A stretch of DNA of 64,000 bases from Plantactinospora mayteni. GTDB lineage: Bacteria; Actinomycetota; Actinomycetes; Mycobacteriales; Micromonosporaceae. The notes beneath the pieces were generated by a model. That model was given only the letters and a program-made list of their open reading frames with translations. It did not search any database and had not been told where the DNA came from. Positions 20,872 through 45,889 of the stretch are shown one piece after another. Location of the stretch: positions 62,001 to 126,000 of the forward strand of contig NZ_BONX01000034.1 in NCBI RefSeq assembly GCF_016862935.1, given 5' to 3'. Both the position numbers and the translations under genes were made by a program. How positions within the stretch are numbered: position 1 is the first letter of the stretch; each line of letters starts with the position of its first letter.

Positions 20872-21531
20872 TCAGGTCGCGTCCGGCCCGTCGTCGCCGG
20901 GGCGGCTCAGCCGGCGTTCGAGGAGCTGACCCGGCCACTGCCGGTCGACAAGCGGCACCGTGAACGGCTCGGTGGCGGTGAAGCCCTGGCGCTCGTAGTA
21001 GCGGATCAGGGCGCCGTCGTCACCGGCGTAACAGTCCACCCGGAGCAGGTCGACCCCCTGGGCCCGGGCGAGTTCCTCGGCGTACTCCAGCAGCCGGGCG
21101 CCGACCCGCAGCCCGGCGTGGGCCCGGTCGCTGACCAGCAGGTTGACGTACAACTCGGGTTCGGTCGCGGGCGGGACGTGCGGCACCGCCGTGCCGACGA
21201 CGATCGCCCCGACCGGGCGCCCGGCGAACTCGGCCAGGTAGAGGTCGCCGTCGGCGGCCCAGCGCCGGACCTGGGCGATCCGGCGTGGGTTGCCGGAGTG
21301 CGGCGCGGTGCCCCACTGGCCGGTGCGACCGCGCTGCATCAGCCAGCGGGTGGCGCCGTCGAGCAGGGCGAGCACCGTGCCGACGTCGTCGGGGCCGCCG
21401 GGCCGGACGACGAGCTGTTCCGGCGAACCCTGCGCGGCCTCCCCTTGCGGTCCGTCCGCGGTGTAGCCGGATGTCGGGGCGCGCGCGCCACGCCGTTCAG
21501 GTGGAGAAGGGCTCGTTGGCACAACGTCCAT
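20872..21531 (-). CDS. GNAT-family N-acetyltransferase
   Basis: The GNAT domain begins at about residue 40 (LVVRPGGPDDVGTVLALLDG) and includes LYLAEFAGRPVGAIVVG, the acetyl-CoA loop region VSDRAHAGLRVGARLLEYAEE and the C-terminal YYERQGFTATE. It transfers acetyl from acetyl-CoA to an unknown amine. The ATG at 21531 is the only plausible start, yet residues 6-36 are encoded by a 92-bp inverted-repeat element (21424-21515) found at two other places in the window. The native N-terminus may therefore have been altered by that element. Confidence 0.85.
   Translation of the reverse strand: MDVVPTSPSPPERRGARAPTSGYTADGPQGEAAQGSPEQLVVRPGGPDDVGTVLALLDGATRWLMQRGRTGQWGTAPHSGNPRRIAQVRRWAADGDLYLAEFAGRPVGAIVVGTAVPHVPPATEPELYVNLLVSDRAHAGLRVGARLLEYAEELARAQGVDLLRVDCYAGDDGALIRYYERQGFTATEPFTVPLVDRQWPGQLLERRLSRPGDDGPDAT
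21424..21515 (-). repeat. 92-bp inverted-repeat element, copy C
   Basis: 17-bp arms (21424-21440 and 21499-21515; 12 of 17 pair) around a 58-bp core. Read on the minus strand, the core ends in GACCGCAAGGGG followed by AGG, as in copies at 30247-30338 and 45571-45662. Size and arm spacing are identical in all three. This copy overlaps the start region of the GNAT gene. Confidence 0.8.
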
Positions 21532-21664
21532 GTTGGCAGAAGATCTATTTACCGGTACCACTGCGAACCGTTCTCGCGTCCGGCCCGGTCGAGCCCGGCT
21601 GCGCTGAGCCGGCGCGGGCCCCGGCGCGTCGCCGCACGCGCCGGGGGCCCGGCCGGACCGGTAC

Positions 21665-24600
21665 TCAGGTGCAGGGCACCCCGTTGACCGTGAACAGTGT
21701 CGGGTTCGGGTTCGGGCCGCCTGCGGTGGTGGCGTTGAAGCCGAACATCTGGCTGCTGCCCGGCATGATCCGCGAGTTGTACGACTCGCTCCGCGCGGTG
21801 ACCCGGGCACCCGACTGGGTCACCTTCGCCATCCACGCCTCCCGGACCTTCTGGTCGCCGTTGAACGCGAAGCTCAGCGTCCAGCCGTTGATCGGCGCGG
21901 TACCGGTGTTGGTGATGGTCGCCTGCCCGGTGAACCCGCCGCCCTCGGCCCAGCTGCCGAAGTTGACGTACGTCACCCGGCAGCCGGAGCCGGCCGGTAC
22001 GGCGGTACTGCCGCCCTGGTCGGCCAGGAACGAGGCGATCCAGGCCAGCGCCGAGTTCCAGTTCACCGCCACCTCGTTGGTGGCGTACGAGGCGATGTCG
22101 TCCACGTAGCAGAACTGCGGCGCACAGCCCTCCAGCAACTGCTCGGCGAACGGGTCGTCGAGGCCGGCGTTCGCACCACCGGCGATCGAGCCGGCCGGCG
22201 GGTTCGGCAGCGACTCGTCGTACTGGTTGCCGAAGATCCGGCTGTGCTGGTTCCTCGACGCCTTCTCGCCCCACCCGGTCACGTACGACTGGTTCAGCGC
22301 GTTCCGGCCGAAGATGTAGTCCATCCCCTGCACCGCGCCGTCCCGGTATTTGGCCTGTCCGGTCAGGTCGAAGGCGGTGGCCAGGACGACCGCGTTGTTG
22401 ATGATGTTGCTGTTGCCGCCCCAGAAGTAGCTGCCCGGGTTGCCCGGCATCGGCAGCCCGTACGCCTGGCCCTGCGCGGTCGCCAGGTAGCCGTCGGCGG
22501 CGGTCACCACCGAGGCACGGATCCGGTCCCGCTCGGCCGTCGACAGGCCGCTCGGCACGGTGGCCAGGTCGAGCCGGCCGAGCGCGGCGGTGCTGCCCCA
22601 GCCGAAGCCGTTGGACGCGAACACCTCGTCGTCGGTGTGGTGCGGCGAGGCGGTCAGGTCGGCCAGGTAGGAGGCACCGCCGGTGCTCAGGTACAGCTCG
22701 GCGGCGGCCCAGTAGAACTCGTCGGTGACGTCACCGTCGCTGTAGGAGCCGCCGCCGTTGCCGTCGTTCGGGTCGGCGTACCGGGTCGGGTTGGCCTTGG
22801 CCGCCGCGTACGCCGTCGTGGCGGCGGTCCGGCAGCGCTGTGCGAACGCGGCGTCGTACGGGGCGTACAGCCGGGCGCACTGTGCGGCGGTGGCGGCCAG
22901 GTTGAGCGTCGCGGCCGTGGACGGCGGGTGCAGTTCGCGCAGTTCCGGGTCGTCCTCGGGTTGCAGGGGCAGCCCGGTCCAGTTCCGGTCGTGCATCTTG
23001 TGGTGTGCCATCCCGGCCAGCGGCTTGCCGGCCGGCACCTGCATCCGGAGCAGGAACTCCAGCTCCCAGCGGGCCTCGTCGAGGATGTCCGGCACGTCGT
23101 TGCCGCGTTCCGGCACCCGCAGCGTGCTGTCGGCCAGGGCCGCGCCGCCACCGGCGGTGGGCGCGGTCTTGGTGCGCTCGAAGGCGTTCAGCAACTGGTA
23201 GGTGGCGATGCCGCCGTTCACGACGTATTTGCCGTGGTCACCGGCGTCGTACCAGCCGCCCCGGACGTCGAGGCGGTAGTCGCAGACCCCGGGCTGGCAC
23301 GGTACGTCGGTGTCGCCCCGGTTCGGCGCCACCCCGAGGTGCCCGGCCGGCCGGGCGTACGCCGCGCCGACCAGGCCGCCGTCGATCGCGATGCCGCTGC
23401 GCTGGATGTAGAAGAACTGGAGCGAGTCGGAGCGGAGCTGCTTCCAGACGTCGGCCGAGATGTCGAACGGGTGGCTGGTCTGGCCGTCGGCGGTCAGCGT
23501 GTAGCCGCTGCCCGGGGTGCGGAACGCGGAGAAGTCGACGGTGTGCACGTTCTGCGCCGACGCCCGGTCCACGCCGCGCGGGGTGCTCCGCCCGCTGGCC
23601 AGCACGGCACCGGCGGCCGACTTCAGCTCCCAGCCCAGCGGATCGGTGGCCTCGGTGACGATCGTGGCGTTCTTCGGCCCGGCCGGCAGGTAGCCGACCT
23701 GGTTGACCCGGACCCGGGGCCCGGTGTCCGGCACGTACGGCGGCTCCTCCTCGCCGCCGAGCAGCGAGGCGTTGTCCAGGCAGAACGTGTACGCCGAGGC
23801 GTTGCCGCCAACCTGGAAGGCGACCTGGGCGACCTCGGTGTCGGCGGTGGCGGTGAAGGTCCGCTCGACGTGCTGCGCCTCGGGGCCGAACGTGATGTCC
23901 TCGGCGAAGTACGAGGTGAACGGGTCGACGCCGAGCTGCACCGCCACCCGTACGGTGGCGCCGGGTGCGGCGGAGGCGTCGAAGGAGAGCGTGTACGACT
24001 CGCCGTTCACCAGCGTCACGTCGTTCTGCCCGACGCCGCCGTCCCACGGGTTGGCCAGCCCGCCCGGCACGGCGGAGCAGAGCCGGCCGTCGGTCACCCC
24101 GGTCGAGGTGGTGCCGTAGGAGTACCAGCCGGAGGTGCCGTCGGCGAAGTCGCCGTTGGTCAACTGCTCGGCCCCACCCGGTGGCGGCCCGGTGTCGGCG
24201 TCACTGCTCAGCGAGACGTCGTCCAGGCAGAACGTGTACGCCTCGGCGGCACCGCCGAGCTGGAACGTGAGGGTGCCGTTGGCCGAGTCGAGGGTGCCGG
24301 TGAACTCGTACCCGAACTCCTCGGCGCTGGCGTCCAGCCCGACGTCCCGGGAGAAGACCGTGGTGTACGGGTCCTCGTTGAGCTGCACGTTCGCCTTGAC
24401 CGTGACCGGCGCGCTGGCCGAGGCGCGGAAGCTCAGCGCATAGCTGGCGCCGTCGGCGAGCGGGATGGTGTTGTGGCCGAGGCTGGCGTCCCAGGGGTTG
24501 GCGAGGCCGCCGGGGACCTCGGCGCAGAGCTGGCCGTCGACCACGGCGAGGGTGAGGTTGGCGGTGGACCACCACGGGGCGGTGCTGTCGGTGAAGGTGC

Positions 24601-24754
24601 CGTTGACGATGTGTTCGGTCGACGCCAGGGTGCCGGCGGAGCCGTCGGGCCGGGCCTGCGCCCCGGTGGCGGTACCGGTGAGCAGCAGGGCGGCGGTGGC
24701 GAGCAGGGTGACCGCGCGGGCGGGCCGGCGGTGGCGGTGGCGGGGTCGGAGCAC
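21665..24754 (-). CDS. Secreted modular cellulase, glycoside hydrolase family 9
   Basis: About 1029 residues from the GTG at 24754 (GGAAGG 8 bases upstream). Order: signal peptide (ending near ATGAQA), two CBM4/9-like modules (about 45-175 and 195-330; [17 protein letters not shown] and [17 protein letters not shown]), an Ig-like CelD_N module (from [17 protein letters not shown]), the GH9 catalytic domain (about 440-930) and a C-terminal CBM2 (last 105 residues, [18 protein letters not shown]). Catalytic residues: Asp in [13 protein letters not shown] and Glu in [13 protein letters not shown]. It cuts cellulose internally or processively outside the cell. A perfect CebR-type operator lies upstream (24832-24845). 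An in-frame ATG at 24880 lies upstream of the operator and is unlikely. Confidence 0.95.
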
Positions 24755-25061
24755 GGGGGATCCCTTCCGGTGGGCGTGCCGCCAGCGGCCCGCAGCACTC
24801 GGGTTCGCGGCGGTGGAACCGGCAGCGCTGGTGGGAGCGCTCCCAATACGGAGCCGATGTTGCCAGTCCGTTTCTGGCATGTCAATCGACCAAGCTGGAT
24901 CGAATTCCTGCCGGGTCGGCGGCCGAGGACCAGCTACCGGGGCCGGAGCGGCTCGCGGTTCGTGATCACCGTAGCCACGTACGGTAAATTTCGACCGCCA
25001 CTCCGGCCCGTTGGTGATCTACTGCAAGCATTCTGGCCGTCTTTTTGGCAGGCTGCCTGCC
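24755..25061. other. Divergent intergenic region, GH9 and PP2C genes
   Basis: This contains the leader, RBS and CebR-type operator of the GH9 gene on the left side and, on the right, the promoter region of the PP2C phosphatase gene. I could not place a convincing -35/-10 pair. Confidence 0.5.
24832..24845. promoter_or_regulatory. CebR/CelR-type operator, perfect palindrome
   Basis: TGGGAGCGCTCCCA, identical to the known operator of the LacI-family cellobiose-responsive repressors CebR (Streptomyces) and CelR (Thermobifida). It is 78 bp upstream of the GH9 cellulase GTG. A near-identical site precedes the GH6 gene at 52737. Confidence 0.93.
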
Positions 25062-25790
25062 ATGAGCCTGAAGCTGCGATCCGTGGCGGTGAGCGACCGC
25101 GGCCTGATCCGGGGAGCGAACCAGGATTCCGTGCACGCCGGACCCTGGCTGCTCGCCGTGGCCGACGGCATGGGCGGAATGGCCGCCGGCGACCTGGCCA
25201 GCACGATCGCCATCGACGCGATCCGGCCGCTGGACGTGGAGACCCCGGAGGAAGGGCTGGTCGCCGCCCTTCAGGGCGCCCTGGACACGGCGAGCGCGGG
25301 CATCCGGGGTGCGATCGCCGAGGACCCGGAACGGCAGGGCATGGGCACCACCCTCACCGCGCTGCTGCTCGCTCGTACCGGCGCCTGCCTCGCGCTGGCC
25401 CACGTCGGCGACTCCCGGGCGTACCTGCTGCGTGGCGGCACGATGACCCAGCTCACCCGGGACGACACCTTCGTGCAGATGCTGGTCGACGAGGGGGTGA
25501 TCAGCCCGGAGGAGGCGCACAGCCATCCCCGCCGGGCGGTGGTCACCCGGGCGTTGCAGGGCGAGCCGGTCACCCCCACGTACACCACCGTGGTGCCGCA
25601 GCCCGGCGACCGGTGGCTGCTGTGCAGCGACGGACTCTCCAATGTGGTCCGCCCGGACAGCCTGGCCGAGGCGCTGCTCGGCTACTCCGACCCGGCCGGC
25701 TGCGCGCAGCGGCTGGTCGACCTGGCCCTGCGGGCCGGCGGGCCGGACAACATCACCGTCGTGGTCGCCGACGTCATCGACACCCCCTGA
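25062..25790 (+). CDS. PP2C-family serine/threonine phosphatase
   Basis: The 242-residue soluble phosphatase has the PP2C metal motifs GANQDSVHAG (Asp), AVADGMGGMAAGD (Asp-Gly), AHVGDSRAYLLRGG, LLCSDGLSNVV and C-terminal GGPDNITVVVADV. It lacks a transmembrane segment, unlike PstP, so it is a cytoplasmic phosphoprotein phosphatase of the short bacterial type. Target unknown; no kinase gene is nearby. The ATG at 25062 (MSLKLRSVAVSDRG) fits the family start better than the upstream one at 25011. Confidence 0.92.
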   Translation: MSLKLRSVAVSDRGLIRGANQDSVHAGPWLLAVADGMGGMAAGDLASTIAIDAIRPLDVETPEEGLVAALQGALDTASAGIRGAIAEDPERQGMGTTLTALLLARTGACLALAHVGDSRAYLLRGGTMTQLTRDDTFVQMLVDEGVISPEEAHSHPRRAVVTRALQGEPVTPTYTTVVPQPGDRWLLCSDGLSNVVRPDSLAEALLGYSDPAGCAQRLVDLALRAGGPDNITVVVADVIDTP

Positions 25791-25834
25791 CCACACCCCG
25801 CCAGGCTCCTCCACGGGTACGCCCGGCGGGCGGC

Positions 25835-28393
25835 TCAGCTCCGGCGGGGTCGCAGGCCACGGGTCGGGGCCGCCTCGGTCGGGTCCGCCGGCCACGGGTG
25901 CCGGGGATAGCGACCGCGCAGCTCGGCACGTACCTGCGGATAGCCGGTCCGCCAGAACGAGGCGAGGTCCCGGGTCACCGCGACCGGGCGGCCGGCCGGG
26001 GAGAGCAGGTGCAGCAGCACCGGCACCCGCCCGTCGGCGATCCGGGGCACGTCCTGCCAGCCGAACGTCTCCTGCAACTTCACCGCCAGCACCGGTGCCG
26101 CCGGATCGGCGTAGTCCACCCGGTGCCGCGACCCGCTCGGTACGGCCAGCCGCTCCGGGGCCAACTCGTCCAGCCGGGCCGCCTCGCGCCACGGCAGCAG
26201 CCGGCGCAGCGCGGCCGGCACGTCGATCCGGGCCAGGTCCGCCCGGCGCCGGGCGGTGGCCAGTTCCGGACCGAGCCACTCGTCGGCCCGGTCCAGCAGC
26301 GCCGCGTCGGTCACCTCCGGCCACTCGCCGCCGAGGGCCTGCCGGCAGAACGCGAGCCGGTCCCGCAGCTCCCGCGCCCGCGGCGGCCAGGTCAGCAGGT
26401 CGAGCCCGACCTGCCGCAGCCCGTCCCGCAGCGCGGCGGCGACCCGGGCCGGATCCGGGCGGGCCAGCGGACGGTCCAGCAGCACGATCGCGCCCAGCCG
26501 CTCCACCTCGCGGGCCAGCACGTCCTCGCCGGACCAGGCGATCTCCTGCTCGCGGCGGAGCAGCGCGGCACCGGCCTCCCGGGCGGTCGCCTCGTCCAGC
26601 ACCGCCGCCTGGCGGATCGCCGCGCCCCGCCGCCCCGGTGCCCGGTCGGCCACCGAGATCGCCAGCCACTCCGCCCCGGCCAGCGGCGAGCCCGGCGCCA
26701 GGTCCGCCGCGGTGCCGCCGGCCATCAGGTACGTCTCGGCGCCGGCCTGCCGGACCCGGGCCAGCCGCTCCGGGTACGCCAGCCCGACCAGCAGCCCGGC
26801 GGCCAGGTCGTCCGGCAACGCCGGGTGACCGGGTCCCCCGGCCCGTCGACCGTCCCGCCCGCTCTGTTGCTCGTCGTGGGCAGGGGTCTGCGGTGACTCG
26901 TCGAGGGCGGCCCGCAGCCGGTTCACCTCCGCCCGCCACCTGGTGCTGGCGGGGTCCGTACCCGAGCGGAGCCGGCGCCAGGCGGCGACCAGGTCGTCGC
27001 CGGGAGCGGACTCGGCGAGCACCGCGACCACCTCGGCGGCCCGGCCCGGGCCAACCGGGGCGGCACCGTCCAGCAGGGCCCGGGCCAGCCGTGGATGCGC
27101 GCCGACCGCCGCCATCGCCCGGCCCCGCCCGGTCACCCGGCCGTCCGGGCCAACCGCACCGAGCGCCTCCAGGGTGGCCCGGGCCACCTGCATCGCCGCC
27201 ACCGGCGGCGGGTCCGGCAGCGCCAGACCGGTGCCGTCCGGGCGTCCCCAGCAGGCGAGCTGGAGCGCGAACGAGGTGAGGTCGGCTACCGCGATCTCCG
27301 GCTCGGGCTGCGCCGGCAACCGGTCCTGGTCCGCCGCCGACCAGCATCGGTAGACCCGGCCCGGCGCCTCCCGGCCGGCCCGACCGGCCCGTTGGGTCGC
27401 CGCCGCCCGGGACACCGGCACCGTCACCAGCGCGCCGAGTCCCCGGGCCAGGTCGGTCCGGGCCACCCGGCTCAGCCCGGCGTCGACCACCACCCGCACC
27501 CCGGGCACGGTGAGGCTGGTCTCCGCGACGGCGGTGGCCAGTACGACCCGGCGTCGGCCGGCGGCCGGGCGGAGCGCGGCGTCCTGTTCGGCGCTGGTCT
27601 GCCGGCCGTGCAGGCGTACCAGGTCGGTGCCGGCGAGGTTGGTCAGTCGGCCGGCGACACCGTTGATCTCCCCGGCACCGGGGAGGAAGACGAGCAGGTC
27701 ACCGTCGTGCTCGGCGAGCGCCCGGCGTACGGTCGCCGCCACGTGGTCGAGTAGTCGGGGATCCACCCGCAGCCCGTGCGGCGGGTCCACCGGCCGGGGC
27801 GGCGGGGCCCAGACCACGTCGACCGGGTACGCCCGACCCTCGGCACGCAGCACCGGGGCCGGCTCCCCCGCCGAGCCGAGCAGTACGCCGAGCCGCTCCT
27901 CCTCGGCGGTGGCGGACATCGCCAGCAGGCGCAGCTCGGGACGGAGCGCCGCCCGTACCTCGATGCCGAACGCCAGCGCCAGATCGGCGTCGAGCTGCCG
28001 CTCGTGGGCCTCGTCGAGGAGTACCGCGCCGACGCCCGGCAACTCCGGATCGTGCTGGAGCCGCTGCACGAGCAGACCGGTGGTGACCACCTCGATCCTG
28101 GTCCGGGCACTCGTGCGGCGCTCGCCACGGACGGCGTACCCGACGGTCTCGCCGACGCGTTCGGCGCGCAGCTCCGCGATCCGGCGGGCGGCGGCCCGGG
28201 CCGCGACCCGGCGCGGCTGGGCGACGACGATCCGCCCGTCGACCTGGTCGGCCAGCGCCAGCGGGACCAGTGTGGTCTTGCCGGCGCCGGGCGGCGCCAC
28301 CAGCACGGCGGCACCCCGCTCCGCCAGCGTCTCGACCAGGGCCGGCAGGACGTGCCGGACCGGCAGTTCGGCGGCGGGTTCAGGCGCTGACAC
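25835..28393 (-). CDS. hrpB: ATP-dependent RNA-helicase-like protein HrpB
   Basis: The 852-residue DEAH-box helicase has motif I VAPPGAGKTTLVP (about 34-46), AQPRRVAARAAARR (motif Ia), DEAHER (motif II), AMSATAE (motif III) and QRAGRAGREAPGR (motif VI). The C-terminal HrpB domain with WPDRLA-type basic and aromatic residues is present. HrpB is widespread in bacteria; its substrate is not firmly known. It is transcribed convergently with the PP2C gene, with 44 bp between their stops. Confidence 0.95.
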   Translation of the reverse strand: MSAPEPAAELPVRHVLPALVETLAERGAAVLVAPPGAGKTTLVPLALADQVDGRIVVAQPRRVAARAAARRIAELRAERVGETVGYAVRGERRTSARTRIEVVTTGLLVQRLQHDPELPGVGAVLLDEAHERQLDADLALAFGIEVRAALRPELRLLAMSATAEEERLGVLLGSAGEPAPVLRAEGRAYPVDVVWAPPPRPVDPPHGLRVDPRLLDHVAATVRRALAEHDGDLLVFLPGAGEINGVAGRLTNLAGTDLVRLHGRQTSAEQDAALRPAAGRRRVVLATAVAETSLTVPGVRVVVDAGLSRVARTDLARGLGALVTVPVSRAAATQRAGRAGREAPGRVYRCWSAADQDRLPAQPEPEIAVADLTSFALQLACWGRPDGTGLALPDPPPVAAMQVARATLEALGAVGPDGRVTGRGRAMAAVGAHPRLARALLDGAAPVGPGRAAEVVAVLAESAPGDDLVAAWRRLRSGTDPASTRWRAEVNRLRAALDESPQTPAHDEQQSGRDGRRAGGPGHPALPDDLAAGLLVGLAYPERLARVRQAGAETYLMAGGTAADLAPGSPLAGAEWLAISVADRAPGRRGAAIRQAAVLDEATAREAGAALLRREQEIAWSGEDVLAREVERLGAIVLLDRPLARPDPARVAAALRDGLRQVGLDLLTWPPRARELRDRLAFCRQALGGEWPEVTDAALLDRADEWLGPELATARRRADLARIDVPAALRRLLPWREAARLDELAPERLAVPSGSRHRVDYADPAAPVLAVKLQETFGWQDVPRIADGRVPVLLHLLSPAGRPVAVTRDLASFWRTGYPQVRAELRGRYPRHPWPADPTEAAPTRGLRPRRS

Positions 28394-28494
28394 CGGGCCA
28401 GTGTCGCACCGGCGGCACCGACGGCCGGCTACCGGTCAGCCCTGGGGCGGCGGCGGGCCGCGCGGCGCCCGTGAGCACAACTCCTCGGCCGGGT

Positions 28495-29298: not shown

Positions 29299-29433
29299 GG
29301 TGGTCCTCCCTGCACTGTGGTGGTGGCGGGGACGGGGTTGTCCGGTCGGTTGGTGCTGGTCGGGTGGTGCTGGGTGGTCGGGTGGTGGTGCGGCTGTTCA
29401 GGCATCACCTTAGCCCGTTGGTATTGGCTGAGG

Positions 29434-29459
29434 CTAGCCGAACGGCTGATGTATAAAAC
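29434..29459 (-). promoter_or_regulatory. Possible SigF-type promoter upstream of sigF
   Basis: On the minus strand: GTTT (29456-29459), 16-base spacer, GGCTAG (29434-29439), one base from GGGTAG. It lies 136 bp before the sigF TTG and would allow autoregulation. Weaker than the other candidates because of the spacer length and mismatch. Confidence 0.35.
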
Positions 29460-29521
29460 CGGCAACGCTGCTCAAAGCCGGGAACTTCGCCGAGATCTTG
29501 GGCCTGAACTAGGCTCCGACC

Positions 29522-30154: not shown

Positions 30155-30246
30155 CGCTCCCGGACGATCCAGTCGCCGACCTCGGCGGTGTCCGGGCCGG
30201 GTGTTCCCGACCGGCGGCGTGGGACCGGGGCGGCGCGGCGGGTCAG

Positions 30247-30338
30247 TGAACCTTTTTCAACCTGAACCACGTGGTGCTCAGGCACCGCGTCCGACCCTGC
30301 GGCCAGCCGGGCCGCAAGGGGAGGTTGAAAAAGGTTCA
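30247..30338 (+). repeat. 92-bp inverted-repeat element, copy A
   Basis: The arms TGAACCTTTTTCAACCT (30247-30263) and AGGTTGAAAAAGGTTCA (30322-30338) pair perfectly over 17 bp around a 58-bp core ending GGCCGCAAGGGG. The last three bases form the pucR stop codon, so the element ends exactly at that gene's 3' end. Same geometry as copies at 21424 and 45571. Confidence 0.9.
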
Positions 30339-32045
30339 GTGCGGTAGGCGCAGCGCGAGATAGAAGTCGACGCGGTCGGGAAACCGGGACAGGTCCCGCC
30401 CGGTGAGCTGCTCGATCCGGCCGATCCGGTAACGCAGGGTGTTGACGTGCAGGTGCAGCCGTTCGGCCGCCCGGCTCCACGAACCGGAACAGGCCAGGAA
30501 CTCCTCCAACGTGCCGACCAGGTCGGCGTCGTGCGCCCGGTCGTAGGCCAGCACCGGGCCGAGCACCCGGTCCCGGAACGCCCGCCGCGCCTCCGGGGGT
30601 ACGCCGGAGAGCAGCAGCAGGTGCGAGGCGAGGTCACCGGCCGAGACCACGCTGCCGGTGCCGGGATCCGCCAACGCCGTCGTCAGGGCGTGTTCGGCCT
30701 GCTCCACCGCGCCCGGCAGGGCACCCGGATCGGCCGCCGGTCCGCTGATCCCCACCGCGAGCCGCCCGGCGCCGAGCCCCGGCACCAGCCCCGCGACCGT
30801 ACCCCGGACCGCGTCCGGAATCCCGGCCAGTTCGGTCCGGCCACCGGCCAGCACGGCGAGTACCGTCCCGGGGCGGGCGGCGCCGGTGACCATGGCCGGC
30901 AGGGTCGCCGACCGGACGAGTTCCTCGGTGATCGCGACCGCCAGCTCCGGGGGCGTGGTCAGCCCGGTCAGCCGGAGGGCCAGCACCAGCAGGGGCGACC
31001 GGGGCGGCAGCCCGCCGGAGGAGAGCGCGGCGCGCAGCTCGGCCGGGGAGGCGCCGCTGGAGAGCGCCGTACCGAGCTGGTCGGCGAGCCGCCGTTCCAC
31101 CCGGCCCGCCTCGTCGGCGTGGGCCCGTTCCAGCGCCACCAGGCTGACCAGCTCGGCCGCCGCCTCGGGTAGCCCGGGCGGCGGGGCGGAATCGACGACC
31201 GGGTGGGCCCGGTCCAGCGCCGGGCTGGCCAGCTCGGCGGACCGGGCGGCGTCGACCGTGGAGCCGGTGACCTTGGACTGGGCGGCGTCGACCGTGGAGC
31301 CGGTGGCCTCGGGTCGGGCGGCACCGTCGAGATCGGGCGGTCCGGGGTGCCGGATCGCGCAGGCCAGCAGCCAGGCGGCGAGCCGGTGCTCGGGACGGCC
31401 GGCGACGGCGACCAGCCAGAGCCGCCGGCCGTCGACCTCGACCAGGGCCGGCAGCCGGCCGGCGGCCAGGAACGAGGTCGCCAACCGGCGGCGGGCGTCG
31501 GACGGCAGCGGCAGAGTACCGGCGACGGTCCGCCCGGCCGAGGTCAGCACCCAGCAGTCGACACCGAGGTCGGCGGCGACCGGCTGGAGCAGGTCGGCCA
31601 GCCGGGCGCCGCCGGCCATCGCCGCGACCAGACCCCGGTACCGGCCGAGCACCGTCGCCAGCCCGTTCGCCCGGCGCGCCCACAGGGTCGGGGTGACCTC
31701 GTCGATGATCTCCCGGAAGGAGACCTCGACCGGAACCTCGAACAGTGGTACGCCGTACTGCCGGCAGGCCGTCACCAGGTCCACCGGCACGGACCCGTAC
31801 ACGGCGTCGCCGGCACCGATCGCGGTGACTCCGGCGGCGGCGCAGGCGGCCACGAACCCCTCCGAGTCACCGGCCCGGCGCCGCCACATCAGCCCGGTCA
31901 GCACGATCTCGCCCCCGGAGAGGTAGCGGCGGGGATCGGGCAGGTCGGTGACGTACACCCGGCTGACCGGGCGGTCCAGCTCGGCTTCGCCGGTGAGCAG
32001 GGTCAGCCGTAACTGGGGGCGGTCCAGTGCCTCGCGCAGCAGCAT
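30336..32045 (-). CDS. pucR: PucR-family transcriptional regulator of purine catabolism
   Basis: The 569-residue regulator has an N-terminal PucR domain (residues 1-125, LTGEAELDRPVSRVYVTDLP and RYLSGGEIVLTG), a GGDEF-like middle region, and the C-terminal PucR helix-turn-helix (CSGSWSRAAERLHLHVNTLR then YRIGRIEQLTGRDL). It is divergent from the urate/xanthine operon and most likely controls it in response to a purine intermediate. A 36-bp in-frame duplication gives TGSTVDAA twice at about residues 247-270. Confidence 0.93.
   Translation of the reverse strand: MLLREALDRPQLRLTLLTGEAELDRPVSRVYVTDLPDPRRYLSGGEIVLTGLMWRRRAGDSEGFVAACAAAGVTAIGAGDAVYGSVPVDLVTACRQYGVPLFEVPVEVSFREIIDEVTPTLWARRANGLATVLGRYRGLVAAMAGGARLADLLQPVAADLGVDCWVLTSAGRTVAGTLPLPSDARRRLATSFLAAGRLPALVEVDGRRLWLVAVAGRPEHRLAAWLLACAIRHPGPPDLDGAARPEATGSTVDAAQSKVTGSTVDAARSAELASPALDRAHPVVDSAPPPGLPEAAAELVSLVALERAHADEAGRVERRLADQLGTALSSGASPAELRAALSSGGLPPRSPLLVLALRLTGLTTPPELAVAITEELVRSATLPAMVTGAARPGTVLAVLAGGRTELAGIPDAVRGTVAGLVPGLGAGRLAVGISGPAADPGALPGAVEQAEHALTTALADPGTGSVVSAGDLASHLLLLSGVPPEARRAFRDRVLGPVLAYDRAHDADLVGTLEEFLACSGSWSRAAERLHLHVNTLRYRIGRIEQLTGRDLSRFPDRVDFYLALRLPH
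31244..31305. repeat. 26-bp direct repeat, period 36, in pucR
   Basis: GGGCGGCGTCGACCGTGGAG plus six bases occurs at 31244-31269 and 31280-31305, twelve codons apart. It lies in a low-complexity linker of PucR. Confidence 0.9.
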
Positions 32046-33081: not shown

Positions 33082-33094
33082 GGAGGCACAGGCG

Positions 33095-39255: not shown

Positions 39256-40439
39256 TGGGCCGGCTCTCCCCGGACGTCCTCGCCGAGCTGGACGAGCGGC
39301 TGGAGCCGGTCGACGCCGAGCTGCGGCGGCGCTATCCGGGGCAGCCGGTGGGGCGGCAGCCGGTGCACACCGTCTACGTGCCGGCCGACCGTTGCGGTCC
39401 GGGGCTGGTGGCGCGGTGGGGTGCGGCGGCGCTGGCGGCGTTGCACGAGCATCCGCCGCTGCCGTACCCGGCGGAGTTGCACGAGCGGGTGGTCGGGAAG
39501 CTGCGCCGGGAGCCGATCGAGGACCTGCGGATCGACTTCGAGGACGGCTACGGGGTACGGGACGACGAGGCCGAGGACGCGGCGGCACGGGCTGCGGGGC
39601 GGCTGCTCGGCGCTGGGCTCGGGGTGCCGTTCGCGGGGCTGCGGATCAAGAGCCTGACCGGGGTGCTGCGGCGCCGGGCGGTGCGTACCCTCGATCTCTT
39701 CCTCGACGCGCTGCACGGTGCCGGTGAGCTGCCGCCGGCCGGCCGGTTGGTGGTGACGCTGCCGAAGGTGAGCGTGCCGGCCCAGGTAGAGGCGATGGTG
39801 CTGCTCTGCGAGCGGCTGGAGGCGGCGTACCGGCTGCCGGTCGGGTGGCTGCGCTTCGAGGTGCAGATCGAGACGCCGGCGGCGATCCTCGGGCCGGACG
39901 GGCTGGCGACCCCGGGCCGGTTGATCGAGGCAGCCGCCGGCCGGTGCAGCGGGCTGCACTACGGCACCTACGACTACAGCGCCGCCTGCGGGATCGCCGC
40001 CGCGCAGCAGAGTTCAGCGCACCCGGTGGCCGACTTCGCCAAGGCGGTGATGCAGGTGGCCGCCGCCGAGACCGGGGTACGGCTCTCCGACGGCTCGACC
40101 AACCTGTTGCCGGTGGGGGAGACGGCTGCCGTGCAGGCCGGCTGGGCGGAGCACGCCGGGCTGGTCCGGCGCGGGCTGGAACGCGGCTACTACCAGGGCT
40201 GGGACCTGCATCCGGCCCAGTTGCCGACCCGGTTCGCCGGCACGTACGCGTTCTTCCGGGACGGGCGGGCGGCGGCGGTGGCGCGGCTGCGGGCGTACCT
40301 CGGGCGGCGGTCGAGCGGGATCCTGGACGAGCCGGCGACGGCCCGGGCGCTGGCCGGGTTCCTGTTGCGCGGGCTGGACTGCGGCGCGCTGACCGAGGCC
40401 GAGACCGGCTTCGACCGGGCCACACTCTCGGCGGTGTGA
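39255..40439 (+). CDS. DUF6986 aldolase-like protein in the allantoin operon
   Basis: A 394-residue protein with TIM-barrel aldolase/citrate-lyase-beta features: EDLRIDFEDGYGVRDDEAED (acidic metal-binding strand), GLRIKSLTG, WLRFEVQIETPAAILGPDGL (Glu), then LHYGTYDYSAACGIAAAQQ. This matches the family I know as DUF6986, found in actinobacterial purine/allantoin clusters. Its reaction is not established. Between xdhA and allB it is a candidate for ureidoglycolate or glyoxylate use, since no ureidoglycolate lyase gene is present. Start overlaps the xdhA stop. Confidence 0.85.
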   Translation: MGRLSPDVLAELDERLEPVDAELRRRYPGQPVGRQPVHTVYVPADRCGPGLVARWGAAALAALHEHPPLPYPAELHERVVGKLRREPIEDLRIDFEDGYGVRDDEAEDAAARAAGRLLGAGLGVPFAGLRIKSLTGVLRRRAVRTLDLFLDALHGAGELPPAGRLVVTLPKVSVPAQVEAMVLLCERLEAAYRLPVGWLRFEVQIETPAAILGPDGLATPGRLIEAAAGRCSGLHYGTYDYSAACGIAAAQQSSAHPVADFAKAVMQVAAAETGVRLSDGSTNLLPVGETAAVQAGWAEHAGLVRRGLERGYYQGWDLHPAQLPTRFAGTYAFFRDGRAAAVARLRAYLGRRSSGILDEPATARALAGFLLRGLDCGALTEAETGFDRATLSAV

Positions 40440-40472
40440 CTGCTGTCGGTCGGAATGCGGGGGAGGAAGGCA

Positions 40473-41843
40473 ATGAGCGGGTACGACCTGGTGCTGCGAT
40501 CCCGGCGGGTGGTACTGCCCGACGGCGAGCGGCCGGCGGCGGTCTGCGTACGGGACGGCCGGATCGCGAAGCTGGCCGGGTACGACGAGGTGCCCGGTAC
40601 CGACCTCGGCGAGCTGGCCCTGCTGCCGGGGCTGGTGGACACGCACGTGCACGTCAACGAGCCGGGCCGGACGGAGTGGGAGGGCTTCGCCTCGGCCACC
40701 CGGGCCGCGCTGGCCGGCGGGGTAACCACGATCGTCGACATGCCGCTCAACTCGGTGCCGCCGACCGTCACCGTGCCGGCGTTGCGCCGCAAGCAGGACG
40801 CGGCCCGGGGCCGGTGCCACGTCGACGTCGGGTTCTGGGGCGGTGCCGTCCCGGAGCACCTGGCCGAGCTGCCCGCCCTGTACGCCGAAGGGGTGTTCGG
40901 GTTCAAGGCGTTCCTGGTCGACTCGGGGGTACCGGAGTTCCCGCCGCTGGATCCGGCCGGGCTGGCCGGGGCGCTGGCCACGGTCGACGCGCTCTTCGTG
41001 GTGCACGCCGAGGATCCGGCCCGGATCGAGGTCGCCCCGGCCTCCGCCCGGTACGCCGACTTCCTCGGCTCCCGGCCGCCGGTCGCCGAGCGGCGCGCGG
41101 TCGAGATGGTGTTGGACGCGGCCCGGCGTACCGGCCGGCGGGTGCACATCCTGCACCTGTCCGCAGCCGACGCTCTGCCGGCAATCGCCGCCGCCCGCTC
41201 CGACGGGGTACGGGTGACCGTGGAGACCTGCCCGCACTACCTGACCCTGGACGCCGCCGAGATCCCGGACGGGGCGACCGAGTTCAAGTGCTGCCCGCCG
41301 ATCCGGGACGCGGCGAACCGTGCGGCGCTCTGGGCCGGCCTGGCCGACGGGACCATCGACTGCGTGGTCTCGGACCACTCGCCGTGCCCGCCCGCGCTGA
41401 AGCGGCGCGACAGTGGCGACTTCGGCGCCGCCTGGGGCGGGATCGCCTCGGTGCAGCTCGGCCTGCCGGCGGTCTGGACCGAGGCGCGGCGGCGCGGCCA
41501 CGGCCTCGCCGACCTGGTGCGCTGGATGGCCCGGCGGCCGGCCGAGATCGCCGGCCTGCGCGGCAAGGGGATGCTTCGGGTCGGCGCCGACGCCGACCTG
41601 GTGGCGCTGGACCCGGACGCGGAGTGGATCGTCGAGCCGGCCCGGCTGCTGCACCGGCACCCGGTCACTCCGTACGCCGGGCGCCGGCTGACCGGCGTGG
41701 TCCGGGGCACCTGGCTGCGTGGCGAGCCGGTCGCGCCGACCGACCCGCCCCGGGGCCGTCTGCTGTCCAGAGTGGACGTCGACGGCTCCACGGGCGACCG
41801 GAGCCTGCCGCTGGGGCAGCCGGCCGGGGAGGGGCGGGGATGA
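40473..41843 (+). CDS. allB: Allantoinase
   Basis: A 456-residue amidohydrolase with [23 protein letters not shown] (HxH), FKAFLVDSG (the metal-bridging Lys), [34 protein letters not shown] and [13 protein letters not shown] (Asp). These are the allantoinase/dihydroorotase class residues, and the context fixes it as allantoinase: allantoin to allantoate. GGGAGGAAGG lies just before the ATG at 40473; an upstream ATG (40455) is less likely. Confidence 0.95.
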
Positions 41844-42916
41844 GTGGCTTCACCGAGCTGCCGGACCTGGCGGCGCGGTCGCTCGGCGGCGGGGTGGTGG
41901 CGGCCAACGACGAGTTCTTCGCCGCCCGGGACAACCTGGTCACCGACGAGCCGCCGGGCTTCGCCGCCGGCACCTTCGGGGCCAAGGGCCAGGTGTACGA
42001 CGGCTGGGAGACCCGCCGCCGCCGTGAGCCCGGGCACGACTGGGCGATCCTCCGGCTCGGCGCCCCCGGCATCGTCAGCGGCGTGGTGGTGGACACCGCG
42101 CACTTCGTCGGCAACTATCCGCCGTACGCCTCGGTGGAGGCGTGTGGGCTGGCCGGCTATCCCGATCCGGCCGAGCTGGTCGACGCCGACTGGGTCAGCC
42201 TGGTGCCCCGGGCGGCGTTGCGCGGGGACGGTCGTAACCTGTTCGAGGTGGGCGACCCACACCGCTACACGCACGTACGGCTGCGGATCTACCCCGACGG
42301 CGGGGTGGCCCGGCTGCGCGTGCACGGTGTGGTCGTACCCGATCCGGCGCTCTTTCCCGACGGGCAGCTCGACCTCGCGGCGCTGGAGCACGGCGGCCTG
42401 GTGGTCGGGTGCAGCGACATGTTCTACGGTGCGCCACGGCAGTTGATCGCGCCCGGCCTGGCCCGGACCATGGGCGAGGGCTGGGAGACCGCCCGCCGAC
42501 GCGACGACGGCAACGACTGGGTACGGGTCCGGCTCGCCGCACCCGGCCAGATCCGGCAGGTCGAGCTGGACACCAGCCACTTCAAGGGCAACGCACCGGC
42601 GGCGGCGACGCTGCGCGGGATCGACACCCGGGTCGCCGACCCGGCGGACGAGGCGGCCTGGTTCGAGATCCTTCCGCGTACCCGGTTGCAGCCGGACACC
42701 CGGCACCGGTTCCCGGTCGACGCGGCCCCGACCGCCACCGAGGTCCGGCTCGACGTCTTTCCGGACGGCGGGATGGCCCGGCTGCGGCTGCCCGGCCGGA
42801 TCGCCCCGGTCGACCTCGACCGGCTGCGCCGGCGCTGGTCGGAGTCGTTGCCCCCGGCACACGCCCGCCAAGTGGGCTCGGCCGGGACCCGGCCGGCGAG
42901 AGCCTGGTGGCCGTGA
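41840..42916 (+). CDS. alc: Allantoicase
   Basis: A 358-residue protein with two homologous allantoicase domains. Each has a [16 protein letters not shown] motif ([19 protein letters not shown] and [17 protein letters not shown]), a VxxDTxHFxGN strand ([11 protein letters not shown] and [11 protein letters not shown]) and [14 protein letters not shown] / [14 protein letters not shown]. It hydrolyses allantoate to ureidoglycolate and urea. ATGA overlap with allB; last recognised pathway gene of the operon. Confidence 0.96.
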
Positions 42917-43089
42917 CCCGGACCGTGCTGCTGCACCTGCTCGACGGCGACGGCCGGCCGCTCGGCGTGCTGCCCGGATACGACGTCCCGGCGCCCTGGT
43001 GGCAGGAGGTCGCCGACGTGGTGGCCGGCGCCCGCGCGCACTACGGCCCTGGACCGGGCGGCCCGAACGGACTGAGCCGGCGGAGGTGA
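42913..43089 (+). CDS. Short coupled ORF, possible gene fragment
   Basis: A 58-residue frame whose GTG overlaps the alc stop by 4 bp (GTGA), the same coupling used throughout the operon. It begins [20 protein letters not shown] then PWWQEVADVVAGAR, which looks like the start of a larger globular protein, possibly an aminoglycoside-phosphotransferase-like protein (from memory, weak). It ends after a Gly/Pro-rich tail (YGPGPGGPNGLSRRR). Either a small protein or the remnant of a longer last operon gene. Confidence 0.45.
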   Translation: MTRTVLLHLLDGDGRPLGVLPGYDVPAPWWQEVADVVAGARAHYGPGPGGPNGLSRRR

Positions 43090-43177
43090 CTGTCGACTAT
43101 CCGTCTTGCCTGCGCTTGTCTGCACCCGGGGCCGGTCGTAGCGTCGCGGCTATCCCGCCGACGCGACAGGAGTCCTG

Positions 43178-43840
43178 TTGAGCGAGCCTGTTCCGCCGTT
43201 ACTCGTCGTGCACTGCCGGATGCTGCACTTCGGTTGGGTGCCGGCGGATCCGGAGGCGGTGGCGGCGATGGTGCCGCCGGGCCTGCGACTGCCGGCGAAC
43301 CGGCAGGTCTTCCTCCAGCAGTACGTGGTGGACGATGCGGCCCAGACCTCCGGGCTGGACAGCTACTCGGCGACCGGACTCGGCCCCGATCTCGACCTGG
43401 CCGACTCGGGCCGGGCCCGCTGGTACGCCCAGCACCTGAGTTCGAGCCCGCTCACCCGGGCCCAGGCGGCGGTACGTGGCGTGCCGGCCGGCACCGGCCG
43501 GACCACGATCGAGATCACCGGACAGGCGCTGGTGGCGGTGACCGAGGCCGACGGTGTGGGGCTGATCCGCACCACCGCCCGGATCGGCCGCAACGTCACC
43601 CGGGTCTACCGGGGACACGTCCGCTACCTCAGCCGGCTCGGCAGCCAGCTCACCGGCGCCACCTGCCCGTATGTCTTCGAGCCGGTCACACCCTTCGAGA
43701 TCGAGTCGGTGGAGTTCCTCGCGCCGGATCATCCCGTCTTCGCGCTCCGGCCGGCCAACCCGTTGGAGTTGCTGTGGGGCTTCTACTCGCCACGCTCGTC
43801 GTTCGCGCTGCCGGGCAGCGAGGGCTGGGTCCGGTACTGA
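43178..43840 (+). CDS. Uncharacterised protein, 220 residues
   Basis: TTG start at 43178 preceded by ACAGGAG. The protein begins VPPLLVVHCRMLHFGWVPADP and has AVAAMVPPGLRLPANRQVFLQQYVVDD, TIEITGQALVAVTEADGVGL and YLSRLGSQLTGATCPYVF. The overall beta-rich pattern recalls the acetoacetate-decarboxylase-like or DUF2071 superfamily, but I do not recognise a defined family and give no function. No signal peptide. Codon use is normal for the genome. It is 40 bp upstream of the PIMT-like gene and may be co-transcribed. Confidence 0.75.
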   Translation: MSEPVPPLLVVHCRMLHFGWVPADPEAVAAMVPPGLRLPANRQVFLQQYVVDDAAQTSGLDSYSATGLGPDLDLADSGRARWYAQHLSSSPLTRAQAAVRGVPAGTGRTTIEITGQALVAVTEADGVGLIRTTARIGRNVTRVYRGHVRYLSRLGSQLTGATCPYVFEPVTPFEIESVEFLAPDHPVFALRPANPLELLWGFYSPRSSFALPGSEGWVRY

Positions 43841-43880
43841 GTCCGTCCGGACCGGCGGCAGCCGTCGTGGCGGGTCGGTC

Positions 43881-45002
43881 GTGACGTCGGCGGACGAGCT
43901 GCGCTCCCGGTACGTCGAGGAACTGCGCCGGGACGGCCTGCTCGGCGGTGACGACCTGGTCCGGGCGTTCGGCATGGTGCCCCGGGAGGAGTTCGTGGCG
44001 AGCGGTTTCGACGGCGGCGACGGGCGCTGGATCGGGCCGGACGATCCCGACTTCCTCTCCCTCGTCTACCGGAACCATCCGCTGGTGACCAAGGTCGCCG
44101 ACGGGGTACCGGTCAGCTCGTCGAGCCAGCCGTCGCTGATGGCAGCCATGATCGAGTCACTGGAGCTGCGCCCCGGCAGCCGGGTACTGGAGATCGGCGT
44201 CGGCACCGGCTACAACGCGGCCCTGATGGCGACCATGGGTGCCCGGGTGACCACGATGGACATCGCGCCGGACGTGGTCGAGCGGGCCGAGGTCGCGCTG
44301 CGCCGAGTCGGGCTGGCCGGCGCCGTCGACGTACGCCTCGGCGACGGCTACCTCGGCGTGCCGGCGGACGCCGGGTACGACCGAGTGGTGGTCACGGTCG
44401 GGGTGACCGGGGTGTCGCCGCGCTGGCTGGACCAGCTCACACCGGACGGTTACCTGCTCGCCCCGGTCGAACACGCCGGGAACCACCCGGTGCTGCGGAT
44501 CCGGCCGGGCGGGCCGGGGATGGCCGAGGCGCGCGGCGAGCTGCGCGCCGGGTTCATGTCCGCGGCCGGGCCGTTGGCGGCCCGTTATCCGGGAGCCCAT
44601 CCGGCGCCCCGCCGGACCGGTGCGCTGCCGCCGCCGACCGTACGGCATCCGCACCGCTGGCATCCACCGCTGGACGTCTTCCGCTACCACGACCTGTGGT
44701 TCGCGGTCGGAGCCTGGGACCGGCGGACCACCTTCGCGGCGGGACCGGCCGGCGGCTGGGGCGGCCCCGGTGGCTGCACCCTGCTGGACGAGCTGCACGG
44801 CGGCGGGGCGGGTCTGCTCGCCGACGGCTCGGTACAGGCGGCCGGCCCGTCCGCCGCCCGGTACGCCGCCGACGTACTCGCCCTGCGGGACCGCTGGGTG
44901 GCCCGGGGCGAGCCGCTGATCTCCGACTGGACGGCCCGGCTGGTACCGGCCGGCGACCCCGACCAGCCGATCCTGGTGCCGTCCGGCTGGATCCAGCGTT
45001 AG
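43881..45002 (+). CDS. PIMT-like SAM-dependent methyltransferase
   Basis: A 373-residue protein. The first 230 residues match the protein-L-isoaspartate O-methyltransferase fold: AFGMVPREEFVASGF, SSSSQPSLMAAMIESLELRP, VLEIGVGTGYNAALMATMG (SAM site) and YDRVVVTVGVTGVSPRWLDQL. The C-terminal 140 residues are an extra domain not in classical PIMT. Actinobacterial PIMT-like proteins act in protein repair or, in some clusters, on peptide natural products; no precursor peptide was seen here. GTG start. Confidence 0.85.
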   Translation: MTSADELRSRYVEELRRDGLLGGDDLVRAFGMVPREEFVASGFDGGDGRWIGPDDPDFLSLVYRNHPLVTKVADGVPVSSSSQPSLMAAMIESLELRPGSRVLEIGVGTGYNAALMATMGARVTTMDIAPDVVERAEVALRRVGLAGAVDVRLGDGYLGVPADAGYDRVVVTVGVTGVSPRWLDQLTPDGYLLAPVEHAGNHPVLRIRPGGPGMAEARGELRAGFMSAAGPLAARYPGAHPAPRRTGALPPPTVRHPHRWHPPLDVFRYHDLWFAVGAWDRRTTFAAGPAGGWGGPGGCTLLDELHGGGAGLLADGSVQAAGPSAARYAADVLALRDRWVARGEPLISDWTARLVPAGDPDQPILVPSGWIQR

Positions 45003-45417
45003 AAACCTCGCACGCCGCTCGCCCGGTCGGGCCTCCCCTCCGGCCCGTCTCCCTCCCCCAGTAGTCCGGTCCGTCTCCCTCCCGGTAGTCCGGTTTTGGC
45101 ACGGCCGTCCCACCGGCACCGGTGGTCGGGGTGGGGCAGGCTACCTCGGAATCGGGCCGCGCTGCCGGGTTTCCGATCGGCCAGAGTGGCAACTCCGATG
45201 TCGGGTTGCCCCCGATCGCGCGCGACGGTGCGGGCTGTGCTTCCACACGGCCTCCGGGCAGCCCGGGCGCCCAGGCGGGGTGCCCAGGTGGGGACGACCG
45301 GCGGCCGTACCAGCGGGAGGCGCCGGGAAACCGGTCAGTCGGCGGCAGGTCGTCGGAGCCGGTACGGCGGTGGTCGTCCTGCCCGTCCAGAGCAGGTGAC
45401 GACCAGGGGAGGACAGC
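45003..45417. other. Gene-free region upstream of small membrane protein
   Basis: A pyrimidine-rich direct repeat lies at about 45041-45094 (CCGTCTCCCTCCC...AGTAGTCCGGT twice). I saw no convincing gene or terminator. It should contain the promoter of the 44-residue protein. Confidence 0.5.
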
Positions 45418-45552
45418 ATGTCCAGCGAGATCATGGACGTTGAGCGGGATCGACCGGACCGGGCGGCGGTGGAGAGCGAGCGTGGTGCCCTCGTCGCGGT
45501 GTTGGTGATGGTCCTGCTCGGCGTGGCCGGCATCTTCGCCGTCTCCACGTGA
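45418..45552 (+). CDS. Small single-pass membrane protein, 44 residues
   Basis: ATG at 45418 with GGGGAGGA 5 bases upstream. The product starts MSSEIMDVERDRPDRAAVES and ends in one hydrophobic helix (ALVAVLVMVLLGVAGIFAV). Codon use is regular for the genome. Its stop is 18 bp before copy B of the 92-bp element. Function unknown. Confidence 0.65.
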   Translation: MSSEIMDVERDRPDRAAVESERGALVAVLVMVLLGVAGIFAVST

Positions 45553-45889
45553 TGGTGTCCGATCTCCCACCGAACCTTTCCGGACCTCAGCAGCGCGGCG
45601 CGTGCGCCCCGTCTGCCACCTGCGGCGACCACCGACCGCAGGGGGAGGTTGGGAAGGGTTCGCTGACGGGACCCGCCGGCCAGCCCGGCTGGCGGGTCCG
45701 CCACTGCCCGTCCGCGAGCGGTCCGCCTCGTCCCGTCCGGTCATGAGCGGTCCGACACGCGCCCGTTCACGAGCGGGCCGCGACGTCCCGTCCGATCACG
45801 ACCGGGGGCCGCCCACGCCCAGTTCGGTCAGGAGCGTGCCGCGATGTCCCGTCCGGGTCACGACCGGGGGCCGCTTACGTCGCGTTCGG
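45553..45889. other. Intergenic region with element B and a 60-bp repeat
   Basis: No gene seen. It holds the 92-bp inverted-repeat element (45571-45662) and, from 45730, tandem repeats of 55-62 bp that run into the MFS gene. Confidence 0.8.
45571..45662 (+). repeat. 92-bp inverted-repeat element, copy B
   Basis: Arms CGAACCTTTCCGGACCT (45571-45587) and AGGTTGGGAAGGGTTCG (45646-45662); 14 of 17 positions pair. The core is again exactly 58 bp and ends GACCGCAGGGGG. It lies just after the 44-residue membrane-protein gene. Confidence 0.85.

What the first reader, a model, noticed from the sequence alone, without database searches (positions are those of the whole stretch)
21424..45662. Family of three 92-bp inverted-repeat elements with fixed 17-58-17 geometry
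Copies at 21424-21515 (minus orientation), 30247-30338 and 45571-45662 all have 17-bp arms separated by exactly 58 bp. One copy pairs perfectly and the others at 12 and 14 of 17. The cores differ but share a GACCGCA(A/G)GGGG-AGG junction and a CGYGGYGC block. Constant length with drifting sequence suggests a conserved structure (an RNA hairpin or a small mobile stem-loop) rather than chance. I know no described element of this form.
Basis: partly seen in the sequence, partly recalled or inferred. Interest (0 to 1): 0.85.

Follow-up and report, generated by a model that had tools for sequence, protein, structure and literature searches.

The report
Start-codon-compatible miniature mobile DNA element
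The three 92-bp repeats belong to a large family of tiny mobile DNA elements in a soil actinobacterium, and because each full-length insertion adds exactly 31 codons, usually without a stop, it can land on a gene's start codon and still leave the gene readable.

Summary
The three copies are real and belong to a family of at least 150 copies in this Plantactinospora genome (scoring cap reached); six congeners hold 23, 13, 7, 4, 0 and 0. It is a non-autonomous, MITE-like mobile palindrome: 92 bp, 17-bp terminal inverted repeats (TGAACC...GGTTCA), T-shaped core. It enters a short palindrome (consensus CA-N-TG) and duplicates its central base (39 of the 40 best copies; 126 of 150 overall; only 6 of 16 in the other two genera). 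Empty sites in sister species fit a net gain of 93 bp at eight loci, including window copies 1 and 3; copy 2 is also absent from relatives. An RNA function is not supported: arm pairing decays with divergence. The unexpected point is frame compatibility: 92 + 1 bp is 31 codons, and the frame in phase with the N-TG junction is open in 87 of 90 full-length copies (other strand, same phase: 84; other four frames: 10-18). Twelve copies sit on a start codon in sense (2.7 expected outside gene bodies); the element's own TG re-creates the start codon. Window copy 1 is an old in-frame insert in an acetyltransferase gene, open in three species. The mobilising enzyme was not found, and translation of the extra codons was not shown.

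The parts
21424..21515 (-). Copy 1 of the element (diverged, arms 12/17), an old in-frame insertion near the N-terminus of a GNAT acetyltransferase gene
   Evidence: C34:83424-83515; absent from G006, G001, G003, G005; present in G002 and G004
20872..21531 (-). Host gene of copy 1, 219 codons, GNAT acetyltransferase (Acetyltransf_1); reading frame intact through the element
30247..30338 (+). Copy 2 of the element (intact, arms 17/17)
   Evidence: C34:92247-92338
30244..30246 (+). Left target remnant CAG of copy 2 (G at 30246 is the duplicated base)
   Evidence: CAGTG stands at this place in G004, G006 and G001
30339..30341 (+). Right target remnant GTG of copy 2 (G at 30339 is the duplicated base); the element's last three bases TCA form the stop codon of the minus-strand PucR-type gene 30336-32045
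45571..45662 (+). Copy 3 of the element (arms 14/17), intergenic
   Evidence: C34:107571-107662; empty site of equal length in G002, G004 and G006
45568..45570 (+). Left target remnant CAC of copy 3 (C at 45570 is the duplicated base)
45663..45665 (+). Right target remnant CTG of copy 3 (C at 45663 is the duplicated base)

Best explanation
The repeats are copies of a non-autonomous (MITE-like) transposable element, 92 bp long, with 17-bp terminal inverted repeats and a T-shaped palindromic core, moved by an enzyme that was not found here. SHOWN: copies lie in a short palindromic target (consensus C/G-A-N-T-C/G, best CA-N-TG), the central base is repeated on both sides, and comparison with empty sites fits a net gain of 93 bp. 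The family is much larger in this genome than in its congeners, and copies decay after insertion. SHOWN: 93 bp is 31 codons, and the frame that starts at the junction codon (target base + the element's TG) is open through 87 of 90 full-length copies into the second N-TG. When the target is a gene's NTG start codon, the native leader still stands before an NTG and the gene follows in frame after 31 extra codons. INFERRED: this makes such insertions tolerable, so they are retained at start codons, and some become permanent protein segments, as window copy 1 appears to have done. NOT KNOWN: which of the two start codons is used, whether the 31 codons are translated at start-codon sites, and the enzyme.
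For: At least 150 copies, cap reached; congeners 23, 13, 7, 4, 0, 0 at E <= 1e-6. Flanking base equal on both sides in 126 of 150, 39 of the best 40, 27% expected. Net gain of 93 bp fits at eight loci: window copy 1 and C4:280855, window copy 3, C2:24142, C35:58057, C19:68477, C3:117297 and C7:333316. Two pairs of identical copies at unrelated sites. Frame open in 87 of 90. Start codons in sense 12 observed, 2.7 expected outside gene bodies; antisense 1 observed, 1.7 expected. Copy 1: open frame with 27-31 extra residues in three species, empty in four.
Against: No autonomous element or transposase found (only partly listed or examined). Outside the genus the flanking bases agree in only 6 of 16 copies seen (4 of 8 in Micromonospora's genus g4, 2 of 8 in g32), and in 7 of 10 in congeners (counted), so the one-base duplication rests on the host genome. 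Copy 1's own flanking bases differ. At C48:20371 both relatives are 4 bp longer, and at C7:333316 G002 is 1 bp longer than predicted. Substitutions are not concentrated at third codon positions (138/215/147 and 84/120/117), and open frames exceed neutral decay only modestly (87 against 79.3, sd 3.1, maximum 88). Only 8 of 17 start-codon sides have a Shine-Dalgarno-like match, so some 'starts' may be internal codons; two of the 17 copies are 91 bp and frameshifted. 12 of 24 copies inside predicted genes break the frame.
Confidence: 0.88

Rival explanations
1. A conserved structured RNA or cis-regulatory hairpin kept for its fold (terminator or 5'-UTR switch).
For: Copies 2 and 3 fold far better than shuffles (z -8.8 and -5.2). 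In tandem intergenic settings the element points the same way as the genes in 48 of 70 (p 0.0025), and outward genes start within 60 bp of its right end more often than of its left end (42 against 14).
Against: Pairing falls from 16.0 to 10.4 of 17 and core z from -2.2 to -0.6 across score groups (the score itself favours consensus, so part is built in). Double changes not above shuffles. Absent at orthologous sites. No Rfam match at gathering score in the window; for copy 2 the best weak match is a microRNA model at E 0.095, 19 bits against a cut-off of 99.
Confidence: 0.05
2. A REP-like palindrome moved as single-stranded DNA by a RAYT/TIRYT-type tyrosine transposase.
For: Palindromic, branched, high copy, mostly intergenic. 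PMC3733652 (passages) describes RAYT-like genes flanked by terminal inverted repeats that form repeat families. The two flanks are not equally strict: A at -2 in 80%, T at +2 in 93% of the best 75.
Against: A target base is duplicated in the host genome, whereas single-strand insertion by that enzyme group leaves none (recalled). The foot is TGAACC/GGTTCA, not GTAG or CGTC. No such enzyme was searched for in this genome.
Confidence: 0.1
3. A conventional MITE with a 3-bp duplication A-N-T, the element being GAACC...GGTTC, as for IS5/Harbinger-like enzymes.
For: For A-N-T targets the net gain is also 93 bp; the end bases T and A look like part of the target.
Against: 14 of the best 75 copies have G at -2, and 12 of these still end in A, e.g. 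CGA|TG..CA|ATG at the best-scoring copy. Base -2 equals the last element base in 30 of the best 40, against 39 of 40 for the central base.
Confidence: 0.1
4. The start-codon excess is neutral: an insertion-site preference, or an artefact of the home-made gene caller, with no role for frame compatibility.
For: The target contains NTG; in-phase frames are open on both strands, so frame alone does not explain sense over antisense; third positions show no constraint; the expected counts use the same rough gene caller.
Against: The background was weighted by the target preference and still gives 2.7 expected, 12 observed. 8 of 17 start-codon sides, all 8 in sense, have a Shine-Dalgarno-like match, against 53 of 283 other sides (p 0.01). 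At C2:24142 both relatives show the uninterrupted leader and start codon.
Confidence: 0.35

Closest known systems
Prokaryotic MITEs (e.g. Correia element, RUP, ERIC)
   Same: Short, non-autonomous, terminal inverted repeats, many copies, mostly intergenic, target duplication
   Different: No parent element found; a one-base duplication at CA-N-TG, where MITEs I recall leave 2 bp or more; length, ends and phase keep a reading frame
Rickettsia palindromic elements (RPE)
   Same: Palindromic elements with a conserved frame that can fuse in frame to unrelated host genes (PMC10969869, section 13)
   Different: RPEs are about 150 bp and nearly half (44 in R. conorii) or 11 of 12 (other species) lie in genes; here 125 of 149 are intergenic by my caller and sense start codons are enriched; no sequence comparison with RPEs was made
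REP / BIME palindromes with RAYT transposases
   Same: High-copy palindromes, mostly outside genes
   Different: REPs are 20-40 bp with GTAG or CGTC tags (PMC3733652, abstract and passages); here 92 bp, no such foot, and a duplicated base

Membership tests
MITE | Terminal inverted repeats on a short element of fixed length | tested here: met
   17-bp arms; 90 of 150 copies exactly 92 bp, 141 of 150 between 88 and 95 bp
MITE | Dispersed repeats with empty orthologous sites | tested here: met
MITE | Target-site duplication | tested here: met
   One base, 126 of 150 and 39 of the best 40 in the host genome; only 6 of 16 outside the genus (counted)
MITE | Shared ends with an autonomous transposon | tested here: inconclusive
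   None found: own genome 104 arm matches, not all listed; 2 stray arms among 230 in fetched stretches; 16 loci examined of 40 arm matches in ten relatives
Rickettsia palindromic element | Conserved open frame that can fuse in frame to host genes | tested here: met
   87 of 90 open; 12 of 24 in-gene copies keep the frame; copy 1 in three species
Rickettsia palindromic element | Large share of copies inside genes | tested here: not met
   24 of 149 with a 15-nt margin; 47 of 149 with a 3-nt margin
Rickettsia palindromic element | Sequence relation to RPE families | not tested
   No RPE sequence was compared
REP (GTAG/CGTC) | 20-40 bp palindrome tagged GTAG or CGTC at one end | tested here: not met
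   92 bp, ends TGAACC and GGTTCA
Known RNA family | Rfam gathering-level match | tested here: not met
   0 matches over the 64-kb window

The most novel reading that the evidence does not exclude
A mobile element tuned to translation: its one-base duplication, TG...CA ends, 92-bp length and stop-free phase together let it land on start codons, re-create the start codon and tag the protein with 31 residues, so that the host tolerates the insertion and the tag can become a permanent part of the protein.
Probability: 0.35. Interest if true: 0.82.

Novelty: new variant of a known kind. Interest (0 to 1): 0.62.

Why it matters
It would be a bacterial case, far from Rickettsia, of a palindromic mobile element that can add coding sequence; a recent review calls such a mechanism conceivable in other prokaryotes (PMC10969869, section 13). 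The one-base duplication at CA-N-TG points to an unidentified enzyme. The start-codon sites with empty alleles in sister species are natural before-and-after pairs for measuring what an inserted 31-codon segment and hairpin do to a gene.

Tried and rejected
Chance inverted repeats: rejected. RNA gene or switch: not supported. 3-bp and 5-bp duplications: do not fit the best copies. Target CANNTG without duplication: does not fit the empty sites, e.g. CAATG at C2:24142 in G002 and G004. Autonomous element: not found. In the own genome 104 arms with up to 1 mismatch were counted, not all listed; among 230 arm matches in fetched stretches 2 lie outside the 150 copies, a half element at C63:59096 and C4:220267. 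In ten relatives 40 arm matches were found, 30 fetched, 16 examined: degenerate, short or truncated copies, stray arms and one unrelated palindrome, none with a partner arm at transposon distance that I recognised. Plasmids and phages: only short weak matches (5 and 2 records). Viral contigs: four arm matches at 40-45% GC without a near-perfect partner, taken as chance. Constraint on the encoded peptide by codon position: no support. Paper searches (listings and starts of abstracts seen) showed no description of this family; they cover one open-access library only. Of two papers I saw more: PMC10969869 (passages and section 13) and PMC3733652 (passages).
Full report
OBSERVATION. The three repeats are present at the stated positions with the stated geometry: 17, 14 and 12 of 17 arm positions pair. 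The right-arm motif occurs four times in the window with up to 3 mismatches, all inside the three elements, against 0.02 expected. Copies 2 and 3 fold as a closing stem plus two inner hairpins, far better than shuffles (z -8.8 and -5.2); copy 1 does not (z -0.13).

FAMILY SIZE AND HOST. Copy 2 as a query found 40 homologues in the host genome, 40 being the number scored of 246 candidates. A covariance model built from 43 copies found 150, again the number scored, all at E <= 4.1e-5 and including the three window copies, which were in the model. Of the 150, 90 are exactly 92 bp and 141 are 88-95 bp. The seven genomes of the genus hold 149, 23, 13, 7, 4, 0 and 0 copies at E <= 1e-6. In a family-wide sample 14 of 200 genomes and 3 of 44 genera matched; in a class-wide sample of 394 genomes only this one did; both used stricter filters. 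The length of contig G002:C13 equals that of NZ_BONW01000013.1, so I take G002 to be Plantactinospora endophytica NBRC 110450 and the genus to be Plantactinospora; G174 shares a truncated copy with Micromonospora craterilacus. The third genus was not named.

MOBILITY. Two pairs of identical copies lie at unrelated sites. The base before the element equals the base after it in 126 of 150 copies: 39 of 40, 35 of 40, 31 of 35 and 21 of 35 from the best to the weakest score group, against 27% by chance. Around it the flanks prefer C/G-A and T-C/G, so the target is C/G-A-N-T-C/G. In the 26 copies of other genomes that I could read (one more was misplaced and dropped), the bases agree in 7 of 10 congeners, 4 of 8 in g4 and 2 of 8 in g32 (counted): the duplication is well supported in the host genome and not in g32. 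Empty sites: window copy 1 in G006, G001 and G003, though its own flanking bases now differ; C4:280855 in G002; window copy 2 absent from G004, G006, G002 and G001, with the left flank too diverged for a length count. Window copy 3 in G002, G004 and G006 with equal length. C2:24142, C35:58057, C19:68477 (G004 and G002), C3:117297 (G002) and C7:333316 (G004) have equal length at the junction after removing 92 + 1 bases; at C7:333316 G002 is 1 bp longer, and at C48:20371 both relatives are 4 bp longer. A 3-bp duplication A-N-T gives the same net length, but 14 of the 75 best copies have G at -2 and 12 of these still end in A.

NOT A CONSERVED RNA. Over the score groups 1-40, 41-80, 81-115 and 116-150, arm pairs are 15.98, 14.05, 12.41 and 10.44 of 17 and core folding z is -2.24, -1.22, -1.07 and -0.59 (141 of 150 copies; the score itself favours consensus, so part of the trend is built in). 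Double changes that keep a pair number 26 against a mean of 18.6 and a maximum of 30 in age-stratified shuffles (90 copies). Between genera whole arm segments differ but remain paired, as expected if both ends are recognised together or are copied from one another.

READING FRAME. With the duplicated base the insertion adds 93 bp, 31 codons. The frame that begins with the target base plus the element's TG, and ends GGT TCA before the second N-TG, is open in 87 of 90 copies of 92 bp; the same phase on the other strand in 84; the other four frames in 10-18. Simulated neutral decay leaves 79.3 open (sd 3.1, maximum of 300 runs 88), a modest excess. Substitutions are not concentrated at third positions (138/215/147 in less diverged, 84/120/117 in more diverged copies), so I do not claim selection on the peptide. 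The two subfamily consensus peptides are (x)NLFQPEPRGAHAPRPTLRSDGPQGEVEKGS and (x)NLFQPEPRGACAPTSTCGHDGPQGEVEKGS, x depending on the target base.

GENE CONTEXT. I used a codon-usage gene caller written here, so starts are approximate. Of 149 sites (one lacked flank) 125 are intergenic and 24 inside predicted genes with a 15-nt margin; 12 of the 24 keep the frame, one of them a weakly supported gene, and 12 break it. With a 3-nt margin 47 are inside genes against 116 expected from target-weighted sites; start codons in sense hold 12 (2.7 expected among sites outside gene bodies), antisense 1 (1.7 expected). A separate count found 15 sense and 2 antisense sides exactly at a predicted start codon, of 94 and 69 sides with a strong outward gene. 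Two of these 17 copies are 91 bp and run out of frame. 8 of the 17, all in sense, have a Shine-Dalgarno-like match before the left NTG, against 53 of 283 other sides (p 0.01). Example: C2:24142, where G002 and G004 read AGGAGGGCGTGACAATG and the host genome reads AGGAGGGCGTGACAA[element]ATG before a GH20 gene. Other such genes are AtuA, ABC transporter, EccD, GH43, periplasmic-binding, response-regulator, amino-acid kinase and GAF proteins (nine start-codon genes scanned). In tandem intergenic settings the element points the same way as the genes in 48 of 70.

WINDOW COPIES. Copy 1 is an old in-frame insertion in a GNAT gene: G006 reads MDVVPMDQLVV and G001 MDDVTTDQLVV, while G000, G002 and G004 carry 31, 31 and 27 extra residues in open frames of 219, 223 and 216 codons. 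Copy 2 sits at CAGTG, overlapping the stop codon of a PucR-type gene, which the element's end restores. Copy 3 is intergenic.

MECHANISM AND LIMITS. The data fit a palindromic element, moved in trans, that enters CA-N-TG with a one-base stagger. The enzyme is unknown: no longer element with these ends was recognised, but the searches were partial. Whether start-codon copies are translated from the left or the right NTG is not known. The hairpin of a fresh copy would cover the left one, and for the proteins that look exported (judged by eye from their N-termini) an extension would precede the signal peptide. The orientation bias could be selection or an insertion preference.

COMPARISON. It meets the MITE features tested, except that a parent element was not found. 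It works like Rickettsia palindromic elements in carrying a frame that can fuse to host genes (PMC10969869, section 13) but is not filed as one: the share inside genes is low and no sequence comparison was made. It is not a GTAG/CGTC REP (PMC3733652, passages) and has no Rfam match at gathering score.

Noticed in passing
L148 2097-2145 (G000 C63:59096): A half element: one arm plus the third stem (CCCCCTGCGGTCCGGCGGACCGCAGGGGG), directly beside a gene end; it may act as a terminator.
   Followed up: partly
L078 9248-9442 and L101 1394-1593: Two pairs of elements in opposite orientation only 14-20 bp apart, at C4:288602/288713 and C23:485620/485727.
   Followed up: no
L035 (G000 C2:305443) and L254 (P. 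endophytica, 1885-1976): One insertion shared by both species at the same site, so some copies predate their split.
   Followed up: no
L290 1460-1517 (G037 C2:1008085): An outward-facing palindrome AAGTTGTTGAAGGTTCA...TGAACCTTCAACAACCT that resembles the arms but has the opposite arrangement; perhaps an operator.
   Followed up: no
L231 and L248 (G170, genus g4): Arms whose middle five bases differ from the host family yet pair well, 17 of 17 in L248 (AGTTT), so arm sequence changes in step between lineages.
   Followed up: partly
window 21665-24880, minus: Multi-domain cellulase gene (CBM_4_9, CelD_N, GH9, CBM_2) next to the copy-1 gene.
   Followed up: no
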